Of a stretch of DNA of 64,000 bases, positions 34,530 to 52,156 are shown in pieces. Source of the stretch: Paramacrobiotus metropolitanus (taxonomy: Eukaryota; Tardigrada; Eutardigrada; Parachela; Macrobiotidae); assembly GCF_019649055.1 (NCBI RefSeq), contig NW_026570312.1, positions 434,001-498,000 of the forward strand. Reading direction: 5' to 3'. The stretch's first letter is position 1, and each line of letters starts with the position of its first letter. The notes under the pieces were generated by a model. The model did no database searches, had not been told where the DNA came from, and was given only the letters and a program-made list of their open reading frames with translations. A program made the translations under genes and the position numbers.

Positions 34530-35740
34530 TCCTCTACACTGTCCTGCTCGGGAATCGTGCCCATAACGCGTACCGCATTCCCGCGCTGTATCTGTTTAGA
34601 CAAGCGCTGCCGAAAAACTCTTTGGCTCGTTTCTGGCCAGTGGCAGAAATTAGGCAGCTTCCAACCTTGTCCACAAGTTTCTTAGTGCCACCGCTCCAAG
34701 GTCCGTGAATTTCGAACGCCGCCGCAACGAAATCGTATCGTGGCATCAGCCAGCTGTGCTTCGATAACTTTCCCCTTTCGGCTTGCTCCGCAGCGGCTCC
34801 AGCGTCCACGGAGGTGCGATCAATATAGGAAGCCTCGAGTGTGTCAACGCAGGTAACATCTACAGCCAGTGGTTTACCTCGTGCCCATGGTACTAGAGTG
34901 ATGACGTCCGGCCTTTTGTTATCTTTACCCGACAGGCCCTTTGGCTCCATTCTGGCTGGAAAGCCCACTGTCTTAAGGCCCCTGGCGATCTCGCCGCTAA
35001 TACCGTCGTGCCTTGGCAGTCTTCCTGCAAAGCGCTTGCAGCGAAGTCCATGCCGGCCCAACTCATCGACTTGCATGCCGCATACGCAAGCGTGAAGAGT
35101 AACAATAGGCGCTCCCAACCGTAAAGCAACGCTGATTCCGCGTTTTGAAATAGGTTTCCGAGTCAAGCAGCGGGAAGTGCGTGAATCCAGATACCGGATT
35201 CGGGTACTGATACAGCTTTGAGATGCGCGACCTGATCCAGTGATCCACGCAATTAGGCTAATTTGGAGAATGTCGGAAGTGTAGCGGGCGTGCCCCATGC
35301 TAGCACTGAGCACAGTTTTGAGATCAGTGGGCTTAACGAAGAAGCCGAAGCCAAGTAGGCTGGGGGAGCTAGCTCCTCGGTACGTCTGATCCCCAAACCA
35401 CCCAGGCGGAGGGGCATGGATGCTTGCAGCCATGTCGGGTAATCCATTTGGACATTGGTTATGCGCTCGACTGCGTCGCGAAACAGCTGGTCCAACCTAT
35501 ACATCTCTTCCGGGATCATCCATGCGAGTGAAGTACGTAAAATATGCACGACTTTTGGCACACCCAGACAGTTTTTAAGTAAAAACAATGCCTGGTGATT
35601 AGGTATAAGGCGCAGTAGTGTGCACATTAACTCCAGTTCCTCCATCTTTTTTGCGATCATCGGTACCACTCCTGATGGCAACAGAGAAGATTCCAGTAGA
35701 TTGAGCTGGTCAGCCGGCACAACTGTCAGATCAGGGAATA
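34530..35740 (-). mobile_element. Retroelement C-terminal region, second copy
   Basis: Two minus-strand frames (35720-35253, then 35433-34534) encode first RLGGLGIRRTEELAPPAYLA with upstream helical sequence, then the Cys/His cluster and RPDVITLVPWARGKPLAVDV as at 27893-28597. A frameshift lies near 35260. The end, ALWARFPSRTV then a shifted tail, marks the 3' terminus near 34530. This copy extends further 5' than the one at 28 kb, showing that the nuclease-like domain follows a linker typical of reverse transcriptase C-termini. Confidence 0.75.
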
Positions 35741-36094: not shown

Positions 36095-36507
36095 GTACAT
36101 CGGCAGTATTGAAAGTGGAATAGAACTGATCGAAACGGACGCTTTGACACGATACAAATTCGATCCAGATGACGCCAGTGTTCTTGATGAGCAGCGCGAT
36201 GTGGAGAAAGTTTCCTGCACGACCATGTGTGAGCTATATATTCGCAAGGTACGTGCAGCTCCATAATGCAATGTTAGAAAAAAAAAACAGAAATCACTTA
36301 GTAGAAAACCGTGCAACTAAAGATAACTCCACAGTGGAATTATCTTTAGTTGCACGGTTTTCTACCAAGTGGAATTTCCACTGTATAATTTAATTGCAGA
36401 TCGATGCAGGAAAAAGCATCTGCTGGGCGCATCATCTCATCCAGCACAGTTTCACAAAAGAGCCAGCTGCTCGCCCCATTGTCGTTTTCCGCATGATACG
36501 AGCCTAG
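36095..36507 (+). CDS. Last two exons of an unidentified gene
   Basis: Exon A (36095-36248) follows a strong acceptor (TTATCTCTTTGCAG) and ends at donor GTACGTG. Exon B (36400-36507) follows TTTAATTGCAG and ends at TAG. The frame is continuous (exon A enters in phase 2 and exits in phase 0). Together they encode 86 complete residues, with an acidic first half (GIELIETDALTRYKFDPDDA), three Cys, and a C-terminus HSFTKEPAARPIVVFRMIRA. No domain is recognised. Upstream exons were not found. A retroelement copy occupies 34530-35740 just before exon A, so the gene may be disrupted or have a long intron. Confidence 0.5.
36301..36365. repeat. Perfect inverted repeat in the intron
   Basis: Arms 36301-36326 and 36340-36365 (26 bp each, starting GTAGAAAACCGTGCAAC) are exact reverse complements around a 13-base spacer. 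The hairpin lies wholly within the 151-bp intron of the two-exon fragment. Confidence 0.85.
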
Positions 36508-38469: not shown

Positions 38470-41400
38470 ATGGTTTTCTTTAAGTTGCTTTTCTGGTGTA
38501 ACGCCATAGCGGGTATCATCGCGAACTGGGATGATCGCGACTATCATGATGACTGGGATGATGTGGTTGTCGACCTACCCTATGGTGAGTCATGAGCAAT
38601 CATCGGTTAAATTACGTACTTTTGCTTTTGACCGGAAGTTTCTACTAGAAACTTTCTAGTGCTTGCCTTAACTTGAAAACGCATGGCTGCAAGTGCAAGC
38701 TGTGTACGTAATAGTTTTTCGGCCTAACTTCACTGTTTTTCATTGTTTGCGGAAACACTCTTTCCCGTGCGTGGCACATTGCTGTCTGAAATCATCCATA
38801 AAATAGAAGTAAGTATTTCTTGCACCAGGTTTTTGAAAAACAGGAGCACACCAGAAAATCGAGAAACCTTGACTGACCGTGAAAGAAAGGGCGCGCCAGT
38901 TGTGCTCTTTGCTTACGTATTTTGTGAACAATTGTTGGAGCTGTGCCTGCGCTACACAGGAACGCGGCGGAAAGCACACACCAAAATGAATAAAATTGGC
39001 ACAATTTTATTAATAAGCGCTTATGAATGACAAAATCTATCGGCCCAGTTTGGGCAAAGGGACAAAAAAACTATGGCTATCCTAAGCTGTCACTTACTAC
39101 GTAATATTTAATGGGCAATAGCCACCACGATAACAATGACTGCAAGCGCCGGTACACTACTTAATAGTTAAAATTACTACGTTGCTTATAATATTATGTA
39201 TTTGGAAACGCAGCCTGAACTGAAGGCTGAAGGTAATTAAAATCCACGATTTCTGCGCTCATTAGCTGCAGACCATATTATTCCACAATAACCCATGCTC
39301 AGCTCATTTGTATCAAATGTCAAAAACATCAAACATAACACTAAGAACATAATTACAGACTGGGAGATGCGCATGGACCCGGCCACGATGCAAACACATT
39401 TAGCAAACACGAGTTCAGGCGCATTTCTGCAAGACGACATCATGTATGCGGATGACTTTGGCAATCAAAGCAACAGAGATATCATTGCGCGTAAGTTCAA
39501 CGCGTTTTTGATGCCTAGATCAAGCCCGAAGTAATGTGGTGATGTGGTAATGGATAAATACCTTTACTGTATGGGCTTCCGAGCTACAGCAGCTTTACTT
39601 TAACTTAAGATGAAAAAGGGCTTAGTTTATGCATGTAATCATTTATAGCACTGACTATGTCTGTTGAACTACTTCCCACAGAAGTTAGCCGGCTCAGGCT
39701 GTGGCCCAACGGAAAAGTTCCTTTCCAAATAAGCAAATTATTTGGTAATTATGCCAGTTTATGTGGTATTTTACGGACTTTATGTATGTTGCGGACGTTC
39801 GTAATCTGCGACTCCTTAATCACATCGCAATTAAGTAACCTCTTATTGTACTTGTTTCAAAGTTCAATTGTTCTAGCTGCTCAAGATCAGTTTATTATTC
39901 AACATTCTATCTCGCTGATCGAGGCAAAAACGTTCAGATGCGTGACGTTCACAAAAAGAACAGACGAACAGGACTACATCATGTTCCGACCGAGCAACAA
40001 GTACGGTTGCTTATGAAATGGCTAACCGCGAATCTTCACAGATGCAATTCGTTGAGTCGAAGTCAATTATGTTAACAGATAGGCTCAAACTCAGAGAACA
40101 AGCAGTCGAAATTACTTGAAACCAGTGTCACCTTTAGTCAGTGAAAGGCTATTACGTAAAAGGATGCCAGTTATTATTATTATTATCAGTACCAATTTGC
40201 AGTTGCTCCTCTTTCGTGGGATTTCATGGCGGAGCGCAGGCTATATTCTTAGATCCCCGACGCTGTATCCAGATAGGAAGAGTGCAGCACGAGATCCTGC
40301 ATGCACTGGGCCTCTATCACGAGCACAGTAGACCGGACCGCAATACCAGCATAATACTCTATGAAGACCAAATACAGGAAGGTCATGAAGCAGACTTTCG
40401 AATTATTCCCAACATGCCGACATTTGGAACGGCCTACGACCTGGAATCGCTCATGCATTATGGGCCATATGATTTCGCCAAAACCGACCACGAGGTCATG
40501 ATCCCTAAATATTCCGGGAAATCCTATCGCATGGGCCAACGGCTGGGATTAAGTGTGCGCGATGCGGCCAAGTTACGCACCGCCTACCGATGCCAAATTG
40601 AGCAGGAGGACGGCATGGACCAGCCGGTTTCCCCTTTGCCCACATTCTCTGGCGAAGCTATGAGTCCAGAACAGTGTGCTGTGCAGTTCTCCGACAACTG
40701 CAGGCCGAAAATTGGCAGTCGAGATAACTGCTCTTTTATCCTGTCGCTGGAAGTTCGATGCCGCGGTAATGCCAGTGCAGAAGAAATCCACGTCGTGGCC
40801 ACTGCTATGGCGGCACCGCCGCTCCGTGCTATCCGGGTGGCATTGGTCGAAGACCAGATCGAAGCGTTAGCGCTCGCTCCGGTGGCGGAGCAGGTTGTAG
40901 TTCTTCTTATGATGTACTGCTCGGCTCGCGATCCCACATCGAAACTTCCGGGGCTGGCGTTTACGAATTTGCTGGAATTCGTCCTGGACAGCTGCTCTAA
41001 TGTGGTAATAAAACGGAGTGATTTTCAAATCTCACTGAAGCTGAGATCCATTATTTTTTCCAACGTGACAATTGTCTATCTGGAAGACGGTACTTTCAAC
41101 AATTTACCAGATCTCCAGATCGTGGCGTGGCATAAGGATCTTCCACATACTTTCGGCAAAAGTAACCACGAAGGACGCCGGTTCGTCCTTAACTCTTATC
41201 AAGAGTACGATTCCGGCCTTGAAATGCAAGGATTCTTAAAACGATTACACTGTGATTGTCAGTTCGCATGGTTGAGAAAATGGCTAGCGCAGAATACGGC
41301 ACTTAAGCGTTCAGTAAAGCCCGGAGAGGTTTACATGTTGGCTGGTTATATGGGCAGCTTCGGACTACAGGCCACTGACGTGTTTCTTCCTGTGGATTGT

Positions 41401-42588
41401 GCTGCAGAACCATTTCCCTGGAACCTCGACATGATTGATCCTACCCAAACGGCATTCTCCCGCAATGAACCACGATGTCAAAAAAAGCCAGCTAACGTTA
41501 CATACAACAATTACAAGCTACTGCGAACGTTCTCTTCAGATCCGATCGATGTGGAGCAGTGTTTCCTACAGTTCAGTAGGACCTGCGCACCGGATGCATC
41601 CAGATTCCCTTCCGCTGACGATCTGATAGAATACTGCCTGATGAGCTACGTAGCGAACATAACCGCTTTACAAATTAACTGCGCTGGTCTCTCTACCACA
41701 CTGCGAGAAGTGCAAGATATCGCCTTTTCTTTCGCGAAACCTCCCTTGCGAGCCGTCGAACTGCTGTTAACCGACGGAGGTCACGTCGTGTACCATGCCT
41801 TCTCTCCGATCCGAGCGCAGGTTCTCGTTCTTAGCTTGTTCGACTGCGTTGAATCCCGCACAACCGATAAAATATCGAGTCTGGGATTTGGCAATCTAAG
41901 GCGGCTGACGCTGACAGGTTGTCGGGACCTGGTCATTGAGGCTGAGGATTTTATCACGGTTCCCCATATTCAGATGCTGCTCCTATCAAACTCCACGGTA
42001 ACGGGAATGACGGAGATGACCTTTAGCCAACTATTACATCTGGAGGTACTTTCTGTGGAATTCGAAATGAACAGGATGCGTGATAAACTGTTGTTGGATA
42101 AGCAATTTGTTGATTACGTACACAACCTCCACTGCAGCTGTCAGTTTGCTTCGTTCCGGAAATGGCTACAGCAGCGCTTCATTGATAAAATGAAACTCTG
42201 GCACGCCGATGAGATCTTTTTTAAAACCTGGACCGCACAGTCGGTATGCCGAAACCGTGTTATATCCGACAACGGAGCGGTTATAATGCTGCAGGATAAC
42301 GAAGGATTCTTCCGCGAGGATTACCACAAGTGGATCTGCTTGGCTAAAGAAGATTTGTATTTACCGGTGGACTGCGGCATTGCAGAGTTCACTAACGCTT
42401 GGTTATCTGCGGATTACAGCATAACCAATTTTTCTGTCAACGAAACAACATGCAAAAAATCCATTGTAACAGAATGCCCAGGCTTAAATTGCCTATTCAC
42501 GCCACGCCCACTGACATCGAAGAGCGACAGAAAATTCTATGGCGCTTATACGAAAGGTGAATGCGGTTTATTAAAAGCGGCAATTTAA
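38470..42588 (+). CDS. Secreted active astacin metalloprotease with two LRR-like modules
   Basis: Five exons are proposed: 38470-38584, 39359-39490, 39682-39744, 39877-40000 and 40203-42588. All have GT-AG introns and compatible phases (1,1,1,2), giving 939 residues. Residues 1-18 form a signal peptide (MVFFKLLFWCNAIAGIIA). An acidic propeptide with FLQDDI resembles the astacin FxGD switch. The mature domain starts near RLWPNGKVPF (about 88) and has the zinc/catalytic motif HEILHALGLYHEHSRPDRN (His174, Glu175, His178, His184) and Met-turn SLMHYG (Met229, Tyr231). Two modules of about 300 residues follow. Each has a QCxxxF start, KPPLRAV-type strands, LRR-like repeats and a Cys cap (LHCDCQFAWLRKWL, LHCSCQFASFRKWL) resembling an LRRCT. 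All catalytic residues are present, so the enzyme should be active outside the cell. The first exon rests on phase and signal peptide only. Confidence 0.8.
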
Positions 42589-42754
42589 ATTATACCTTTC
42601 TTCCGTACATGTACTCGTACATTGTTTCGTTTTTGTTTTTGGAGAAATAACATGGAATTCATAATTTCTAATGTTTTTTTTAAATCATAATTTCTAATGG
42701 TACGAATCTTTTAGTCGTAATCTATTTTCTTGCATTTTATATTTTTTGAATTTT

Positions 42755-42760
42755 AATAAA
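42755..42760 (+). promoter_or_regulatory. Polyadenylation signal of the first astacin gene
   Basis: AATAAA lies 167 bp after the stop codon in AT-rich DNA, before the next gene, and supports the stop at 42588 as the true end. Confidence 0.5.
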
Positions 42761-43044
42761 CCAACTTGCTAATGCCTGAATCTTGCCAGTTTCCTTACTA
42801 AGAACATATCATTCGAGCACTAAGCGAATGACTGACAAAGTTTGTCAGACAAACTTGTCAACTCTAACGACGAAATGAACTTTCTAATTTTTCCCCGTTG
42901 ATTTTAGCATATCGAAAGCACACTTGCTCAGGCAGGTTGCCGCAGTCACACAACCCGGCAAACGTAACAGTTGCTACAGTTTTTTACAGTGGCTGCAGTG
43001 ATTAAAGGTAGAGCCACGAAGTGATTAAAGGTAGAGCCACGACG

Positions 43045-46000
43045 ATGTTATGTTGCCTTATAGACTGGATGATCAACATCAACCAGCAAGTGACAAGAGA
43101 GCGCAGATCGGAATTCACGACACTGGATGATACAGCGACATTTCATCATTATGACGACCAGGCGCTTAACAATAATTCGGCACTGCAGGATGCAGGTCGT
43201 CTGCCCGATAACGGTATTTGGCCGCAGAACGGCAAAAACATTCCATACTCAATTGACGCTAATTTTGGTAAGTGCATTAAGAAACGCTAACTATTCCGCG
43301 CTGTACAGCCATTAAATTCTCAGAAACGATAACTATTCCGCGCCTGTACAGCCTTTGGAAAGGTTGTACATGCGCGGAATAGTTACACAGCGGAATTCCG
43401 CCGTATAAGTATTAGCTCGGTTATCTGCAAACTGCAATAATGCAAACTTGGCACAATAACATTCACTTTGTTCACAACACAATGCCACCCATCAGGTAAA
43501 TCTATGTTTTTATATGTTTATTACCGTAACGGCCGAAAGTCGTGTCACTGGAAATACTACCCGTATTTTACTGTGAAACTTACAATTAGATGCGGTTGAT
43601 CAAGCGGAAATTCTCGATGCACTCCATGCGATTGAGTCTCGCACCTTGCAATGCTTAACCTTCATCAGAAGAACGAACGAAGATGACTGGATTGCGTTTT
43701 TGAAAACAAATAAGAAAAGGTATGCTTGGCATGTCGCGAATTAAATTCTCTTTTGCACTGGTAGTTGGTGCGGCACGAAAATTCTGCACCTGCTAAATTC
43801 TCAGAGGTGCAACATCGATTTGTTAATAACAGGTTATGGTGTATATTTAAGCGATTCAGATAAAGACTACGACAAGAAGGTGGAGGCACTTTTATGTGCA
43901 CGTCCAACCAGTGTAGCATTAGCGCCGCCAAATACACCGCATGGGAACAGTGAACTACTTTGAACACGAGGGTAGCATTAGCCGGACACTGGACCGTACG
44001 GTTTTGTAATTTATCATGATCACTCGCTTTCTGCCGATGAGTCATAAATACCGTAGATACGAAGTACACGGCTGTTTAGGGTAGCCGTCGCAACCGCTGT
44101 CAGAAATGGTGTTATTAAGTAGAAAATTCGGAAGAGGCGTGCGCGAAAGAGAGTTGCGAGGCAAAGCTGGAAGTAAGCCAAACGCTCGTCGGAGAATGGT
44201 CCGCCATTGACTGGTGGATCCTGTGATGAATTTGAAGCATCTACTGCTTCCGTATCACGCCGCTCCGTTGCGTTCCGTATTACTGCTTCCGTTTTTTACT
44301 GCTTCCGTAGGTGTCAGTCACATGTGGGCAAGCAAGGTGGCCAGCAGAATATAACTTTATCCTACGCCTGCGTCACCCGCGGGACTATCCAACATTTGGT
44401 TCTGCATGCTCTCGGCCTCTTCCATGAACACCACCGCCCGGATCGCGATGACTACGTGGACATTTACTACAATCACACTGACCTTCTCCCCACTGATATC
44501 ATGTTGCGCAGATTCCCAAACATGTCGACGTATGGAACGGATTATGATCTGGAGTCGATCATGCACTATGGTGTGTACGATCTGGCCGATCCACGCCATC
44601 CCAACCGACCGGTGTTCGTTCCCAAAAACCTACCAAAAGGGAAACGCGTCAAACTGGGCCAAAGGCGCTCGCTCAGCGCTAAGGACATCGTCAAGCTGTG
44701 GACGGCGTATAACTGTACCATCCAGAAGGACCGGCCGTTGGGCGTCGAACCCGTTCCGGATTTCCAACGCACTAGGCTGTCGTTAGCGCACTGTCAGACC
44801 TTGACAAAGCTGAAATGCTGCAACATATCCGCGCTAAGCTGCAGCCAATCAAAAACTATCCGATTGTTATGCGACTTCGACACAACCAGTAGAGACTGGA
44901 AGGACGTTTCGACAACGATAGCCACGTTTCCTTTACATGCGATCACCTTACATTTATTTGACAACCATGAACTGCGGAGCGGCGGAAGCGCTACACGCAC
45001 TTTTGATCCGATTCGGCGGCAAATTGTTCTGCTGACGTTCAGCTTCTGTACGGGTGTGTACTCCGCAGCCCTTATATCGTTACTGCGTTTCGCTAATCTG
45101 GTGAACTTCACGGTGAGGTTCTGCTACGAAGTGGTCATAAGGAAAATGGATTTTATTGGGCTGGATCGGCTGGAAATCGTGATCTTCAGTTTCAGCACCA
45201 TACAGAGTTTAGAATGGGACACCTTTAGCATTTTACCGGCACTGAGAATTCTCAGTCTGGAGAACAACATATACACCAATAGGAGTATGCGAATACGGCA
45301 AAATAACGTCAGTTATATGGGAGTGGATCAGCGCGTTGCCTATATTCGGAGACTGCATTGCAGCTGTGATTTTGCCGCTTTTCGTTTATGGAGAAATGCC
45401 AATAAGAATCTACTGTTTAATGTGCTTGAGGGAGAAATTCATTACATTGACGGCGTTATGCGAAACGATGAAATTGCCGCGCGAGAGATTTTTTATCCAG
45501 TTGACTGCCTTGCTGATCCTTTTCCAACTGTGGAAAGCGCGTTTAACTATTCTCAAACGAATTATTCCATAAACGAACCACGGTGTAAGTGCAAAGTTTT
45601 GGATTTTTTTTAGTCTACTAGGGCAGTTTTTTCAGGCCGTGGTTAACAAGCAAACATTTCCAAGACTGTACAAATGCCTAGACTACACTAATCCCATTCT
45701 GCTGTTTTCTTAAGGAAAATGTCCGGATTCAGATACTAAAACGTTCGCTTTCAGGCACTCGGAACACTTTTTTGTACTACTTTATGTCATTTTAAAGCTA
45801 AATGATTTGCATACTTTGTCCGGGAAACCTTTTACTCGCGCAGCATCCGGTTGCCGAGATATTGCGAACCAATATAAGCGCAAAGTTTAAATGCATCGTT
45901 GTGTACCAAAAGTATGGTTATGACCCGGTCTTGTTGAAACTTTGCTGTAAGTGTACACCAATGAGGTTAAGATTATTAACATAGTGAATTCACCGTTCTG

Positions 46001-46809
46001 TACTTTAGGCGGTTTGCCCTCAGCCGTTGAGCGGCCCAACCAAACTGAATCTACCAAAATACCGATTCAGAGACCGGAAACTGCTGGTACCGTAAATTAC
46101 CAAAACAAATAATTTTTATCTGTTAAAGAAATCCTGCTCCGAGTTAATGCTTTTATACAGTTTTTTGTAGGTCGGAACCACTCGAATCCTTATCAAGATA
46201 GCGAGGGTATCAGCCAGTTAACGGACTGATCTACATGTGACGTGCATTTCATTTTTGAAGAACACCTTTTTTTGTCTAGAATGGCCTCTCTTGTTCAATA
46301 CTTCCATGCTTTCGCACCGGTTATTCACGACACCGAGCCCGGAAAAAGGTTGGCCTAGTTTTTGGTGTATTTTGTATTTGGCTGTTTCCCGCTATACATG
46401 AGTCATAGAGACGGACACTTACCTAGACACTACAGCCGCCGCCAACCAGCAAGCTGACTCGGGCAAATGGTTGTATTCTTGCCTGGGTGTACTGGCCGTG
46501 CTGGTTTCCATTCCCGTTATATATTTTATTTGGCGCTGGTCAAAAGAGCACCGTTCCAGTACCAAGAATCCGGCCTCGACGAATACTGATCGTTATTCTG
46601 CCGACAACGGATATCCTATGGGATCTCCAGCTGAAGCGGATCAGTCCATGGAACTATCGGTTCGGAGTCGGGACGACAAAGAGGGTTCCATAAGTTCAGC
46701 TTCCGACATAGTCGAAGCTGCGCAACTGTTAGGTGTCGCACCGGCTGCTGACACTAGCTCCTTAGAGTCTGCATCTGGTGTGGATAAAATGGCGAATACA
46801 GAAAATTAA
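43045..46809 (+). CDS. Membrane-anchored astacin-LRR pseudoprotease
   Basis: Proposed exons are 43045-43267, 43590-43719, 44311-45584, 46009-46086 and 46403-46809. Phases agree (1,2,1,1) and the total is 2,112 bases, or 703 residues. The mature domain starts at GIWPQNGKNIPYSIDANF. The zinc motif reads HLVLHALGLFHEHHRPDRD: the three His are kept (146, 150, 156), but the catalytic Glu is Leu147 (codon TTG at 44396-44398). The Met-turn SIMHYG is intact. One LRR-like module with Cys cap LHCSCDFAAFRLW follows, then NEPRC. Exon 5 supplies a transmembrane helix (about 592-614, SCLGVLAVLVSIPVIYFIW) and an 89-residue Ser/Asp-rich cytoplasmic tail. The 5' start is uncertain because no clear signal peptide is seen, and an upstream exon is possible. 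Intron 1 holds an inverted repeat (about 43323-43385) and intron 3 a foldback-arm relic (45790-45975). Confidence 0.7.
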
Positions 46810-47530: not shown

Positions 47531-49139
47531 CTAAAATTCTTCGACGCGACCAACAAAAAGAATGGCGTTGGTTGGATTATGGCGAATGGCGAAAATAAAC
47601 GGATGATCAGCGACGAACGATTTGGGCGGCTCGCGGTCGGCTGATGCTCCCAGTACGAATAAGGTCACAGCGGCGGCTTCCGTCCCGTACTCATCAATTT
47701 CTAGCAACAAGGTCAAACTGTTATCGGCTTGAAAATGACACAAATATTGAATAGGTGTCTAACAGGCGACGCAGAATAGTCACGAACGGCTGATACGATG
47801 TGAAGGTTATCTGACGTTTTTACTTTTTCTTAATAACTTTAATCAGTATGTTTTACAAAAGGCAACGCCTAGCGTTCACGAAGACGAAGAATCCATTCCA
47901 GTTAATGCAAGATGGAACAGTTCCCAAATTACTCTGAGCATTACCAAGCTGAATTTCGAGACCTAAACGTTGAAAAAGAAAACAGATGAAGCGTCGAGAT
48001 GGAACAGGGCTTTCTCTCGTTCGATTATACAGTTTCTTGTCGATTTCCTTCAACAAATTACTTATCTTACATACTTATCTTGCCTACAAATTACTTCTTT
48101 CAACAACCTTTTTATTACTTGTCTTACCTACGAACGCCTTATGGAATGCATGACTGATGTGCCATCTGTTTGGGAATTTGAATGGTGCCATATTTGAGAA
48201 ATCCGCTGTGCTATTATCAAACGCTTCCCTAACCCCGATCAGCAGTAACATGGCGCTTAAATCAAGATCCGCTTCCGCTCTGAACTTGGGAATATCAACC
48301 GAAACCTGTTTTTCCACGACTTTCTTCTGCAGCTCACCAAGCACACCAGCGGTCAATTTCTTCTCCAAAGCACGAAGACCGTCTTTTTTGTTAGGCAGCA
48401 AAAACAACATGGCGCCTTGGTTGTTAACGTATGGATACTCAATATATTTCACATCTAAATGTGCATCCTCCGCGTAAGGAAGCCCATAGACAAACTGGTG
48501 CATGGTGTCCACCTGGATCGTCTGTCCGGTCAGAAGAGTGAAATCCTTCTTTTTGGTTAGAAACGGCTCAAACTGCAGATCCGGCTCCCAGTTGGCTTTG
48601 AAGTACAGGGCGTTGGCTAGCACCGCAATACTGTCGTTCACCACCGCCCCGATGGGCAGGACGTCCTGGATGCGTCCGTTGGATCGGTCGGCCACCCATT
48701 TGTTGATTTCCCGGCGGGATTTTTCCGGATCCGCTTTGAAATCTTTGGACTCGGCTTGGGATTCCAAGTAGTAAACCAGATTATCTTGAAACTGTTTCTG
48801 GAAGATCATACCTTTCTGTAAAAAGATAGCGTTCACCAGACTGATGATAAAGCTGGCCCTTGGATCGGTAGATTTCGTTGAGGTGAGGTTGGCCATGGAA
48901 GTGGAAAATGCGGTAAGTAGTGCATCAACGTCACTGCGGAAGTACTGATCAAAACGGAAGCTCTTGGCCAGGTTGGACTTGGTCGAACCGGATGAGCCGA
49001 CGTAGAGCAGCGCGCTGGCATACAGAATAGACACGGGGGATAATGCCAGATTGCCAGTGGGTTGCAGCCGGATAGCGGCGTTGTACAGCTGGGCGACGTT
49101 GGCGTCCAGCAGCTGGTTAAATGTCGAATTTTCCATCAT
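47531..49139 (-). CDS. Intracellular-type inhibitory serpin, two exons
   Basis: Exon 1 is 49139-48128 (ATG at 49139-49137) and exon 2 is 47700-47531 (TAG). The donor TAG|GTAAGAC and the acceptor TTGCTAG|AAATT agree in phase 1, giving 393 residues, the usual serpin length. There is no signal peptide ([20 protein letters not shown]), so it should act in the cytoplasm or nucleus. Serpin marks are [39 protein letters not shown] and [11 protein letters not shown] in exon 1. Exon 2 has the hinge [13 protein letters not shown], then [17 protein letters not shown] and LFVGRV. The hinge has small residues at P12-P10, as in inhibitory serpins. Gap-free counting from P15 Gly343 puts P1 at Ser357 and P1' at Ala358. 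It would be expected to trap a serine or cysteine protease, not the neighbouring metalloproteases. Confidence 0.9.
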
Positions 49140-50369
49140 GAACAATTAAGCGTGACCGGCTGCCATTGCCAGAAAGGTTTTACTTACTGCCTGTCTAACG
49201 TGGTCCGGATTATTAGCTACTCGGTCTGAGCGGCTGCTTAACGCATACGTAAGAAGATTTTAAGGCTGCAAAATTCCGGCGACAATTGAATCACATGCCT
49301 AACCGGTTATAATTGTGAAATCACGCACAAAATTTATTACTGCAGTTTACGAGGCTCCCTTGTGAGTGCAGTTAATCAAATCACAAATGCATCAGTATGA
49401 AGGCCATGCCTCGAGCGGATTACGTAATGTTTCGTCCAAGTGCCCCATGCACCTACCCGAGCAGGCATGCCACCGTCACTGCAGGGGATCGCCACTGCCC
49501 CTTTTGGGATTGTTGTTATACAGGTCCCTTTTCATAGTGTTAATAATTTCACTCTGGTCTCTGACTAGAAAAAAAGTCCACGCCCACGTGGGGCGTGGAC
49601 CCTACTTATTATCTTCAGTCTGTCCCTACTTATTATCTGCCATGCATAGTTCTTTGCTCATATTGCGATTAGTTCGACGTAATATGGTTATGTGCAACAA
49701 CATTTTTGATGTACAACTGGTTAAGCGGCTACATAATTTTATCTGCGATAATCGGTACACAGTTTCTGAAAAAGGTTCTTCATAACATCGTTACAGGCGG
49801 CAGGCCTATTTAAATAATTTTCATTATTTATCCGGCTAAGGAAAGAAACCGCCAGTACTATGGCCCGATGCACGGCGTTTGCAACGGAACATTTTAATTT
49901 AGCTGTTGTTGAAGGATGTTATGCTTATGCAGCATGACGATTACGGGAACCATCATGTGGAAGTTTCGCATGATTACCCGTACCTCGCTTCCGTCCAAGA
50001 CATCCCAAAATGACAGCGGGATGTGCGCGGCATATTTGTCTATGGTAGCCTCTATGGTAGCGTATACGTAACTCGTGGTTTTATTCAGAACTCGGTTTTA
50101 CTGGCATTAATTGCGTTACTCGCACGCTTCCTGTAAATCCTAACTTTAACGGTCCCGCTTCCCGATAAAGGTCAACTTCCTGCGGCACGATACATTAAAA
50201 TTTTGTTTATGTGATTTACTATCTGTATGACCACTGGAAGCAGTAAACTGTCCTGTGTAATACGCCTGTTTTGGGTACATTTGGTTGTGTTCGTGTCTAG
50301 AAGAAGCCGGGCTCCTGCGGCTATTAACTTGTTGATCACTCATGCACGCCAAATGCTCGTTGCACTTTA
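49140..50369. other. Repeats and no gene
   Basis: A near-perfect hairpin lies at 49575-49599 (GTCCACGCCC and GGGCGTGGAC). A copy of the hairpin-bearing dispersed module (ATTACGGGAACCATCATGTGG through ACCCGTACCTCGCTTCCG) lies at about 49900-50040. No coding exon was seen. Confidence 0.45.
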
Positions 50370-50613: not shown

Positions 50614-51142
50614 ATGAATCATTTCATGGGTATAGTAAATTACTGTATATGCATTCCAGCCATAAGACTTTGCGGGGGAATACTGTTTCATTAAAAAAAT
50701 TTAAACACTGAAAAAACAACCGGAAATGCGGAATCTGTGTTATTTCCGTCGGCACGCCGCACGTTAAAGGGCAGTGTACTGTAATGGATCATTTCCTTTG
50801 CGAACAGCCAAAGTGAAATGCTTGAGAAAAGCAGTGGAATGCACAACTCCACTGATGTGATTCACACATTTCCCGGCTTATAAAATGCCATTATTCGGTT
50901 AAAGCTGGGTCGAAAGCATCCGGCGTTTGAATTGCTATGGGAAAAGCAAGTTAACGATTTACCATGAGGAGCACTTCTTGTGATGTATGTGTAGCGGCGA
51001 TGTAATACTTTATTAACCTGCTCGCTACCGAGCCAACCAGACAACTAATCGCTAAACATGGCGACAAAATCGCTTTCAGTCCCTGTGTAATGTACGTACC
51101 AACCACGACGACTACCCGTGCTGGCGGCAGGCGACACTACCA

Positions 51143-52156
51143 GTGAGCAGAGGTGGCATAGGCATTCGTCGAGCGGAGGAATTAGCACTCCCAGCCTATT
51201 TGGCATCGATTCACTCCGCGTCCGATTTAATGTCTAAGCTGCTACCTGATCACCCCCCCCCCCCCGTTAACACTTCCGCTGCCTTGGAATTGTGGAAAGC
51301 GAACGCGCGCCTCACTGATCTTCCTGAGCCTAACTTTAAGAAGTTACAACGGTCCTGGGACTTACCGCTGTGCAATGCATCACTATCGACTCTCCTGGAC
51401 GTTTTCCGCCATGACGAAGTAAACAGGGCTCGACTCCTGGGTCAGTCGACTCCAGAAGCCGGTTTATGGCTGAATGCCTTGCCCTCGGCGCATATCGGTA
51501 ACCTTCTCGATGATGAAACCGTAATGATATCGATCGGGCTGAGACTGGGAGTTGCAATCTGTGAGCCTCATCTTTGCGCTAAATGCAACAAGCCGGTCGA
51601 CGTGTACGGCCACCACGGCTTGTCCTGCTCTTTTTCAGCCGGAAGACATGCTCGCCACGGTGGCTTAAACAGTATTGTGTGTAGAGCGTTGGTATCAGCT
51701 GGCATCCCCGCCAAAGTGGAACCCCGGGGAACTTCCCACACGTCAGACAGACGTCCAGATGGTTGCACCACCTTCGCTTGGAAACGCGGTATGTGCTTGG
51801 CATGGGAAGTGACATGTGTGGACACTGTCGCTATGTCACATCTGCGATCAACTTCAACGACAGCAGGATCCGCTGCCGCACAAGCGGAAGAGAAGAAAGT
51901 GCGATTTTATTTCTATCTGGAGGGTAGATATATCTTCGCACCGCTGGCTTTCGAAACACTTGGTCCATGGGGAAAGTCAGCTACCCGTTTAATGAAAGAA
52001 ATCGCCAAGCGGCTTCAGCAGCACACGGGAGAGCCACGCTCGCACGAATTTCTCCGCCAGCGACTGTCACTGAAAATTCAGCGAGGAAACGCCGCTTCCG
52101 TGCTCGGAACAATGGAAGGAGCGGCGTCATTAAACGAAATTTTGTTTTCTGATTAA
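51143..52156 (+). mobile_element. Retroelement C-terminal region, long intact copy
   Basis: A single open frame of 337 codons encodes GGIGIRRAEELALPAYLA, a helical middle, LRLGVAICEPHLCAKCNK, then GHHGLSCSFSAGRHARHGGL (a Cys/His cluster), RRPDGCTTFAWKRGMCLAWE and CVDT, and a tail QRLSLKIQRGNAASVLGT before TAA. It is the intact counterpart of the broken copies at 27893 and 34530 but belongs to a different subfamily. The PD...E/D-x-T spacing suggests a restriction-like nuclease used to nick target DNA (inference). The polymerase part is missing upstream. A run of ten C at 51252-51262 lies within the frame. Confidence 0.7.

What the first reader, a model, noticed from the sequence alone, without database searches (positions are those of the whole stretch)
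43045..46809. Membrane-anchored pseudoprotease next to its secreted active paralogue
Two phase-compatible downstream exons (46009-46086, 46403-46809) add a transmembrane helix and an 89-residue Ser/Asp-rich tail to the inactive astacin-LRR, while the adjacent gene encodes a secreted active form. A receptor or decoy that binds the same substrates, or dimerises with the active enzyme, would be a coherent two-gene system.
Basis: inference. Interest (0 to 1): 0.8.

Follow-up and report, generated by a model that had tools for sequence, protein, structure and literature searches.

The report
One gene: active-plus-dead tethered protease
What looked like two neighbouring genes, a secreted protein-cutting enzyme and its dead membrane-bound cousin, is most likely one gene for a single cell-surface protein that carries a working and a non-working copy of the enzyme in a row, and the same layout recurs in the animal's genome.

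Summary
The inactive astacin-LRR module (catalytic Glu to Leu, HLVLH) and the transmembrane exon 46403-46806 are real; a profile built without the window finds that exon at E 1.7e-11. The 78-base exon at 46009 only fits splice rules. The two-gene reading is not supported. The ATG at 43045 lies in an intron just before a phase-1 acceptor and gives no signal peptide; the other 13 of 14 genes compared lack an in-frame ATG there. The 'adjacent' active gene has a phase-1 donor (42556|GTGAAT) that joins in frame to that acceptor: ten exons, one open 1626-residue protein: signal, active astacin, two LRR domains, pseudo-astacin, LRR, TM, tail. The A-to-B stretch was modelled in 14 genes of this genome. 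First modules keep HExxH in 14 of 14; second modules have HLxLH in 16 of 16 scored and are strongly constrained (catalytic dN/dS 0.04-0.09 in four pairs). Likely mechanism, inferred: the pseudo-module with its LRR docks substrate or a partner and tethers the active module in cis, as in carboxypeptidase D. A new variant of a known kind. No RNA evidence was available.

The parts
38470..38584 (+). exon 1: start codon, signal-like peptide MVFFKLLFWCNAIAGIIA, acidic stretch; ends phase 1
   Evidence: homologous exon in L004 (E 1.1e-7)
39359..39490 (+). exon 2: pro-region of module A (DW... FLQDDI)
   Evidence: L004 model
39682..39744 (+). exon 3: start of astacin domain A (LWPNGKVPF)
   Evidence: L004 model
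39877..40000 (+). exon 4: astacin domain A
40203..42556 (+). exon 5: astacin A with QHEILHALGLYHEH, then two LRR+cap domains; phase-1 donor GTGAAT at 42557
42557..43063 (+). A-to-B intron (holds the stop 42586-42588 and the ATG 43045 that made it look like two genes)
43064..43267 (+). exon 6: linker with RERRS dibasic site, pro-region and start of pseudo-astacin B
43590..43719 (+). exon 7: pseudo-astacin B
44311..45584 (+). exon 8: pseudo-astacin B with QHLVLHALGLFHEH (Glu to Leu), Met-turn SIMHY, then LRR + cap
46009..46086 (+). exon 9 (possible stalk; splice-consistent only, no homologue seen)
46403..46809 (+). exon 10: short stalk, TM helix, 89-aa cytoplasmic tail, stop

Best explanation
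One ten-exon gene (38470-46809) encodes a single 1626-residue type I membrane protein: signal peptide, active astacin metalloprotease, two LRR domains, linker with a conserved dibasic E(R/K)R-S site, pseudo-astacin (catalytic Glu to Leu, three zinc His kept), LRR domain, TM helix, cytoplasmic tail. Shown by sequence and comparison: one open frame with matching phases; the same A-to-B arrangement modelled in 14 genes of this genome; strong constraint on the pseudo-module; a conserved TM exon in a subset. Inferred: that the two halves are made as one chain in the animal, and that the pseudo-astacin is a non-cutting docking or pairing domain that, with its LRR, holds substrate or a partner and tethers the active astacin at the cell surface in cis, as proposed for the dead third domain of carboxypeptidase D. 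Cleavage at the dibasic site could release the active half while the pseudo-half stays on the membrane.
For: Single open frame and phases. A-to-B joint modelled in 14 genes. Phase-1 donor in 10 of 10 A ends tested, 0 of 10 in phase 0, none of 2000 base shuffles reaching 10. No in-frame ATG before exon 6 in 13 of 14. HE in 14 of 14 A; HL with three His kept in 16 of 16 scored B. B rows are one side of a branch (97/95), A rows one side (99/97), both with the same deep split; A and B distances correlate, r 0.899 over 13 genes, 0 of 20000 permutations as high. B catalytic dN/dS 0.04-0.09 in four close pairs, A 0.04 and 0.10 in two. LRR profile hits TLR13 at 2.7e-16 and other LRR ectodomains. E(R/K)RS in 14 of 14 linkers. 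TM exon conserved.
Against: No transcript or protein data. The spliced aligner joins A to B by construction; independent support is. Against codon shuffles the donor count is not striking (mean 7.77; 10 of 10 in 142 of 2000). In C63far the aligner took other donors and two tiny exons, so that joint is uncertain. One A-to-B intron (C19far) holds a 13-residue match to the exon-1 signal (E 0.097). TM exon not found for 9 of 17 B modules. Strict R-x-(K/R)-R in only 3 of 14 linkers. The highest permuted correlation was 0.895, close to the observed 0.899, and within the 10-gene subclade it is modest (r 0.471, 959 of 20000). The tree does not make B the nearest relative of A: single-module rows group with B. 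Three B modules had no A in the fetched DNA: C7c, C31, and C252 at a contig end. The docking function is untested; the fold prediction failed.
Confidence: 0.7

Rival explanations
1. One locus, several products: the full A-B chain plus a secreted A form (intron 42557-43063 retained, stop at 42586-42588) and/or a B-only membrane form (exon 1 spliced straight to exon 6). These joints are all phase 1, so each combination stays in frame.
For: Phases; A's frame reads through the donor to a stop 17-197 nt later in the 10 genes tested; AATAAA in the A-to-B intron of the window and 5 other genes of 14.
Against: No AATAAA in 8 of 14 such introns, several of them under 300 nt, and the sequence after the donor does not align well, so no conserved secreted end.
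Confidence: 0.15
2. Two separate genes: a secreted active astacin-LRR and a neighbouring membrane pseudoprotease with an unseen first exon.
For: A has a stop codon; the C19far intron has a weak signal-like match; the window has an in-frame ATG at 43045.
Against:: no convincing start or signal exon for B, conserved phase-1 donor in A, short gaps.
Confidence: 0.08
3. The B module is a decaying remnant, anchored but without function.
For: Some copies may be damaged: the C135b model skips the active site, the C252 model holds an ill-fitting stretch, and large exons of L007, C7b, C135b, C58c and C7c are split by the aligner.
Against: Low dN/dS in B's catalytic domain; 16 of 16 scored share HLxLH with three His.
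Confidence: 0.04
4. B is still a protease that uses HLxxH with another base.
For: Three zinc His kept in 16 of 16 scored; Tyr kept in 8 of 17.
Against: The catalytic Glu is needed in metzincins (established knowledge); Tyr lost in 9 of 17.
Confidence: 0.03

Closest known systems
Carboxypeptidase D (M14)
   Same: Tandem peptidase domains in one chain, last one inactive, then TM and cytosolic tail; the dead domain is suggested to bind partners or present substrate (PMC11266112, section 9 read)
   Different: Unrelated fold and chemistry; two active domains; no LRR
Meprin alpha/beta (astacins)
   Same: Astacin catalytic domain; membrane tethering of a secreted partner (recalled)
   Different: Two active subunits from two genes with MAM/TRAF/EGF domains (recalled); no pseudo-domain, no LRR
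Pseudoprotease ADAMs (for example ADAM11, 22, 23)
   Same: Membrane-bound metzincins with lost catalytic residues (PMC11266112 passages)
   Different: Zinc His often lost too in the table passage seen; one peptidase-like domain per chain, disintegrin modules
LRR receptor ectodomains (TLR13, TLR8, LGR5, SLITRK1)
   Same: LRR plus Cys cap similar by profile, followed by one TM in this protein
   Different: Short LRR stacks with protease modules attached; the tail exon matched no TIR (only a weak BatA match, E 0.24)

Membership tests
Astacin (M12A), module A | Pfam PF01400 and HExxHxxGxxH plus Met-turn SxMHY | tested here: met
   E 9.1e-36; 14 of 14
Astacin (M12A), module A | signal peptide and FXGDI pro-motif | tested here: inconclusive
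   signal-like exon 1 by eye; FLQDDI is not an exact FXGDI (motif from PMC9848320)
Astacin (M12A), module B as an enzyme | catalytic Glu of HExxH | tested here: not met
   HLxLH in 16 of 16 scored
Astacin domain, module B | PF01400 match, three zinc His, Met-turn | tested here: met
   E 1.3e-32; His in 16 of 16 scored; Met in 15 of 17, Leu in 2
LRR domain | LRR Pfam score over the cut-off | tested here: not met
   LRR_8 24.8 and 22.2 bits, cut-off 27
LRR domain | profile similarity to solved LRR+cap structures | tested here: met
   TLR13 2.7e-16; 115 distinct sequences at E<=0.01 (60 shown)
Type I membrane protein | N-terminal signal, one TM, cytosolic tail | tested here: inconclusive
   model by hydrophobicity; TM exon conserved in 8 of 17; no topology program or experiment
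Carboxypeptidase D-like layout | active and inactive peptidase domains in one anchored chain | tested here: met
   layout of the gene model only; not an M14 member
Carboxypeptidase D-like layout | dead domain binds or presents substrate | not testable with these tools
   needs biochemistry
Meprin | MAM/TRAF domains | tested here: not met
   no such match at E<=1 in the five pieces scanned

The most novel reading that the evidence does not exclude
A multigene family of cell-surface recognition proteases: each protein pairs a cutting astacin with a non-cutting copy and three TLR-like LRR domains, so that target binding by the pseudo-half directs cleavage by the attached active half, with dibasic processing able to turn a tethered form into a secreted protease plus a membrane receptor stub that signals or recycles through its conserved tail. 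This would be a one-gene protease-receptor unit expanded in one animal lineage, perhaps for defence or gamete recognition.
Probability: 0.2. Interest if true: 0.8.

Novelty: new variant of a known kind. Interest (0 to 1): 0.6.

Why it matters
In the texts searched, LRR-fused or tandem active/inactive astacins were not mentioned: the 2023 astacin review has 0 hits for 'leucine', 'LRR', 'tandem' and 'inactive' in its main text, and the M12 pseudopeptidases in the passages seen of the 2024 review are ADAMs and unc-71. If the single-chain reading holds, this genome offers a natural series of 14 related genes in which an active and a dead copy of one protease have stayed linked since before the family's deep split, a good system for asking what a pseudoprotease does for its active twin in cis. 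It also corrects a gene model that annotation may split in two.

Tried and rejected
AlphaFold2 on exon 8 with a two-row window-only alignment gave mean pLDDT 32.4: unusable, so no fold search was made and the second job was not used. Start at 43045: rejected. Operon with trans-splicing at exon 6: disfavoured, because exon 6 has an early Met in only 2 of 14 genes (window, L007) and no signal peptide follows. Conserved poly-A signal in the A-to-B intron: AATAAA in 6 of 14 only. Separate signal exon for B: weak candidates only, the best in C19far. A first splice model with a wrong first base was corrected. Organism: 169.8 Mb fits the 170 Mbp reported for the tardigrade Paramacrobiotus metropolitanus (PMC11191345 passages); an inference, not a test.

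Rows dropped: C135b from the B tree and the distance test because its model skips the active site. In the tree the active-site columns were not left out. dN/dS used 9 A exons and 12 B exons of the 14 and 17: the L003 A exon and the C252 and C31 B exons gave stops in the coordinates used (their models start inside the exon, so this is at least partly framing), and exons split by the aligner did not enter. In one search, 10 of 14 A ends were tested (L007, C7b, C135b, C58c left out, their A exons being split in the models). L019 of the C36 cluster printed no ORF.

Full report
What is there. The window is G000:C92:434001-498000 of a 169.8-Mb animal genome. Exon 44311-45584 encodes an astacin domain (PF01400, 1.3e-32) whose HExxH reads HLVLH, followed by an LRR region. 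The upstream ORF 40138-42588 encodes an astacin with intact HEILH and two LRR-type regions. Downstream, 46403-46809 encodes a TM helix and an 89-residue tail.

One gene, not two. Reading splice sites and phases gives a single open model of ten exons, 38470-38584, 39359-39490, 39682-39744, 39877-40000, 40203-42556, 43064-43267, 43590-43719, 44311-45584, 46009-46086, 46403-46809, 1626 residues, all introns GT-AG. The stop at 42586-42588 lies inside the intron after donor 42556|GTGAAT, and the ATG at 43045 lies just before acceptor TAG|43064. Module A has the same kind of phase-1 acceptor before its own DW motif, so A and B look like two copies of one phase 1-1 module type; the tree, however, does not make B the nearest relative of A.

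Tests of the joint that do not depend on the aligner. In 10 A C-termini (of 14 genes; the other four have split A exons in the models), a phase-1 G|GT donor occurs in 10 of 10, 79-106 nt after the last Cys, against 0 of 10 in phase 0 and 3 of 10 in phase 2; base shuffles give a mean of 3.45 and at most 9, codon shuffles a mean of 7.77 and 10 in 142 of 2000. In 14 genes, an in-frame ATG directly upstream of exon 6 exists only in the window. Modelled A-to-B introns are 62-282 nt in 8 of 14 genes, and 8 of 14 hold no AATAAA. Against: one intron (C19far) holds MFSKFVFWLNAIA, similar to the exon-1 signal, E 0.097, perhaps a relic of a duplicated first exon; and the C63far joint is uncertain, with two tiny exons in the model.

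A family of such genes. The genome holds 18 QHLxLH and 34 QHExLH sites of the patterns searched, 0 for the reversed controls; 15 of the 18 have a QHE site 3-15 kb upstream on the same strand (my count from those lists; one of them, C19:309514, is a second B after C19:305679). Fourteen A-B genes could be modelled over the A-to-B stretch: the window, L001-L007, C63far, C19far, C326far, C7b, C135b, C58c; exon 1 was recognised by similarity in only a few of them. Three further B modules had no A in the DNA fetched: C7c, C31, and C252, where the contig ends. A cluster on contig C36 has single-module astacin-LRR ORFs: of 12 printed, 10 keep HExxH and 5 have a TM in the same exon.

The pseudo-module. 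HE in 14 of 14 A; HL with three His in 16 of 16 scored B (the 17th, C135b, is not scored because its model skips the site; one search lists an HL site there); Met-turn Met in 15 of 17, Tyr in 8 of 17. B rows are one side of a branch (97/95) and A rows another (99/97), with the same deep split. A and B distance matrices correlate (r 0.899, 13 genes, 0 of 20000 permutations, highest 0.895), but the signal inside the 10-gene subclade is modest (r 0.471, 959 of 20000). For B exon 8, six of 66 pairs had dS below 2, with median dN/dS 0.17; for its catalytic part four close pairs gave dN 0.08-0.11 at dS 1.06-2.76, a ratio of 0.04-0.09, and its LRR part 0.14-0.22. A's catalytic part gave 0.10 and 0.04 in two pairs, the third being saturated. 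TM and tail exons are looser: 0.27-0.68 over ten pairs of five loci.

Anchoring. A homologous TM and tail exon was found downstream of 8 of 17 B modules: window, L002, L003, L004, L005, C63far, C19far, C31. For the others it was not found within the 1.4-5.6 kb read, so those may be secreted or have a distant or different exon. Tails share a pattern (QSMELS...DDKEGSISSASD in the window, QSIELS...DDREASIDSASD in C31). The LRR part is below Pfam's cut-off in the window, matches LRR_8 weakly in 6 of 8 members (E<=0.1), and as a profile hits TLR13, TLR8, LGR5 and other LRR ectodomains.

How it may work. Inferred: the dead module keeps its zinc ligands, so it is more likely a binding or pairing domain than an enzyme; with its LRR and TM it would hold the active module at the cell surface and may present substrate, as suggested for the third domain of carboxypeptidase D (PMC11266112, section 9 read). 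A dibasic E(R/K)R-S site in 14 of 14 linkers could allow cleavage between the halves, though only 3 of 14 fit the strict R-x-(K/R)-R rule. Alternative splicing could also give A-only or B-only products because these joints are phase 1. The fold prediction failed, so nothing structural supports this.

Literature. Eight searches listed no paper whose title or abstract concerns astacin-LRR fusions or tandem active/inactive astacins; this says nothing of papers not held. PMC9848320 and PMC8191133 were seen as passages only, PMC11266112 as passages and section 9, PMC11191345 and PMC12167791 as passages.

Verdict. Interest 0.6; new variant of a known kind.

Noticed in passing
B modules of 17 loci: The 8 B modules with a TM exon found are exactly the 8 that keep the Met-turn Tyr; the 9 without one found have F, L, V or S there. 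On the tree this is about two clades, so perhaps two events.
   Followed up: partly
G000:C36:427200-522600 (L017-L029): Cluster of single-module astacin-LRR ORFs, 5 of 12 printed with a TM in the same exon; two (L027, L028) have a degraded zinc site.
   Followed up: partly
whole genome: 164 astacin matches (a lower bound; exon by exon): a very large astacin expansion.
   Followed up: no
48087-49145 (-): Single-ORF serpin just downstream (PF00079, 4.3e-67).
   Followed up: partly
36305-36368 and about 43311-43390: Hairpin-like inverted repeats in non-coding stretches, seen by eye.
   Followed up: no
34537-35496 (-) and 51056-52153 (+): Two ORFs with similar LGGLGIRR/RGGIGIRR..EELA.PAYLAS text, probably mobile-element remnants; no Pfam match at E<=0.01.
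   Followed up: partly
L012 (G000:C19:309421-309714): A second HLxLH module with a stop inside the match follows the C19far gene; perhaps a broken extra B copy.
   Followed up: no
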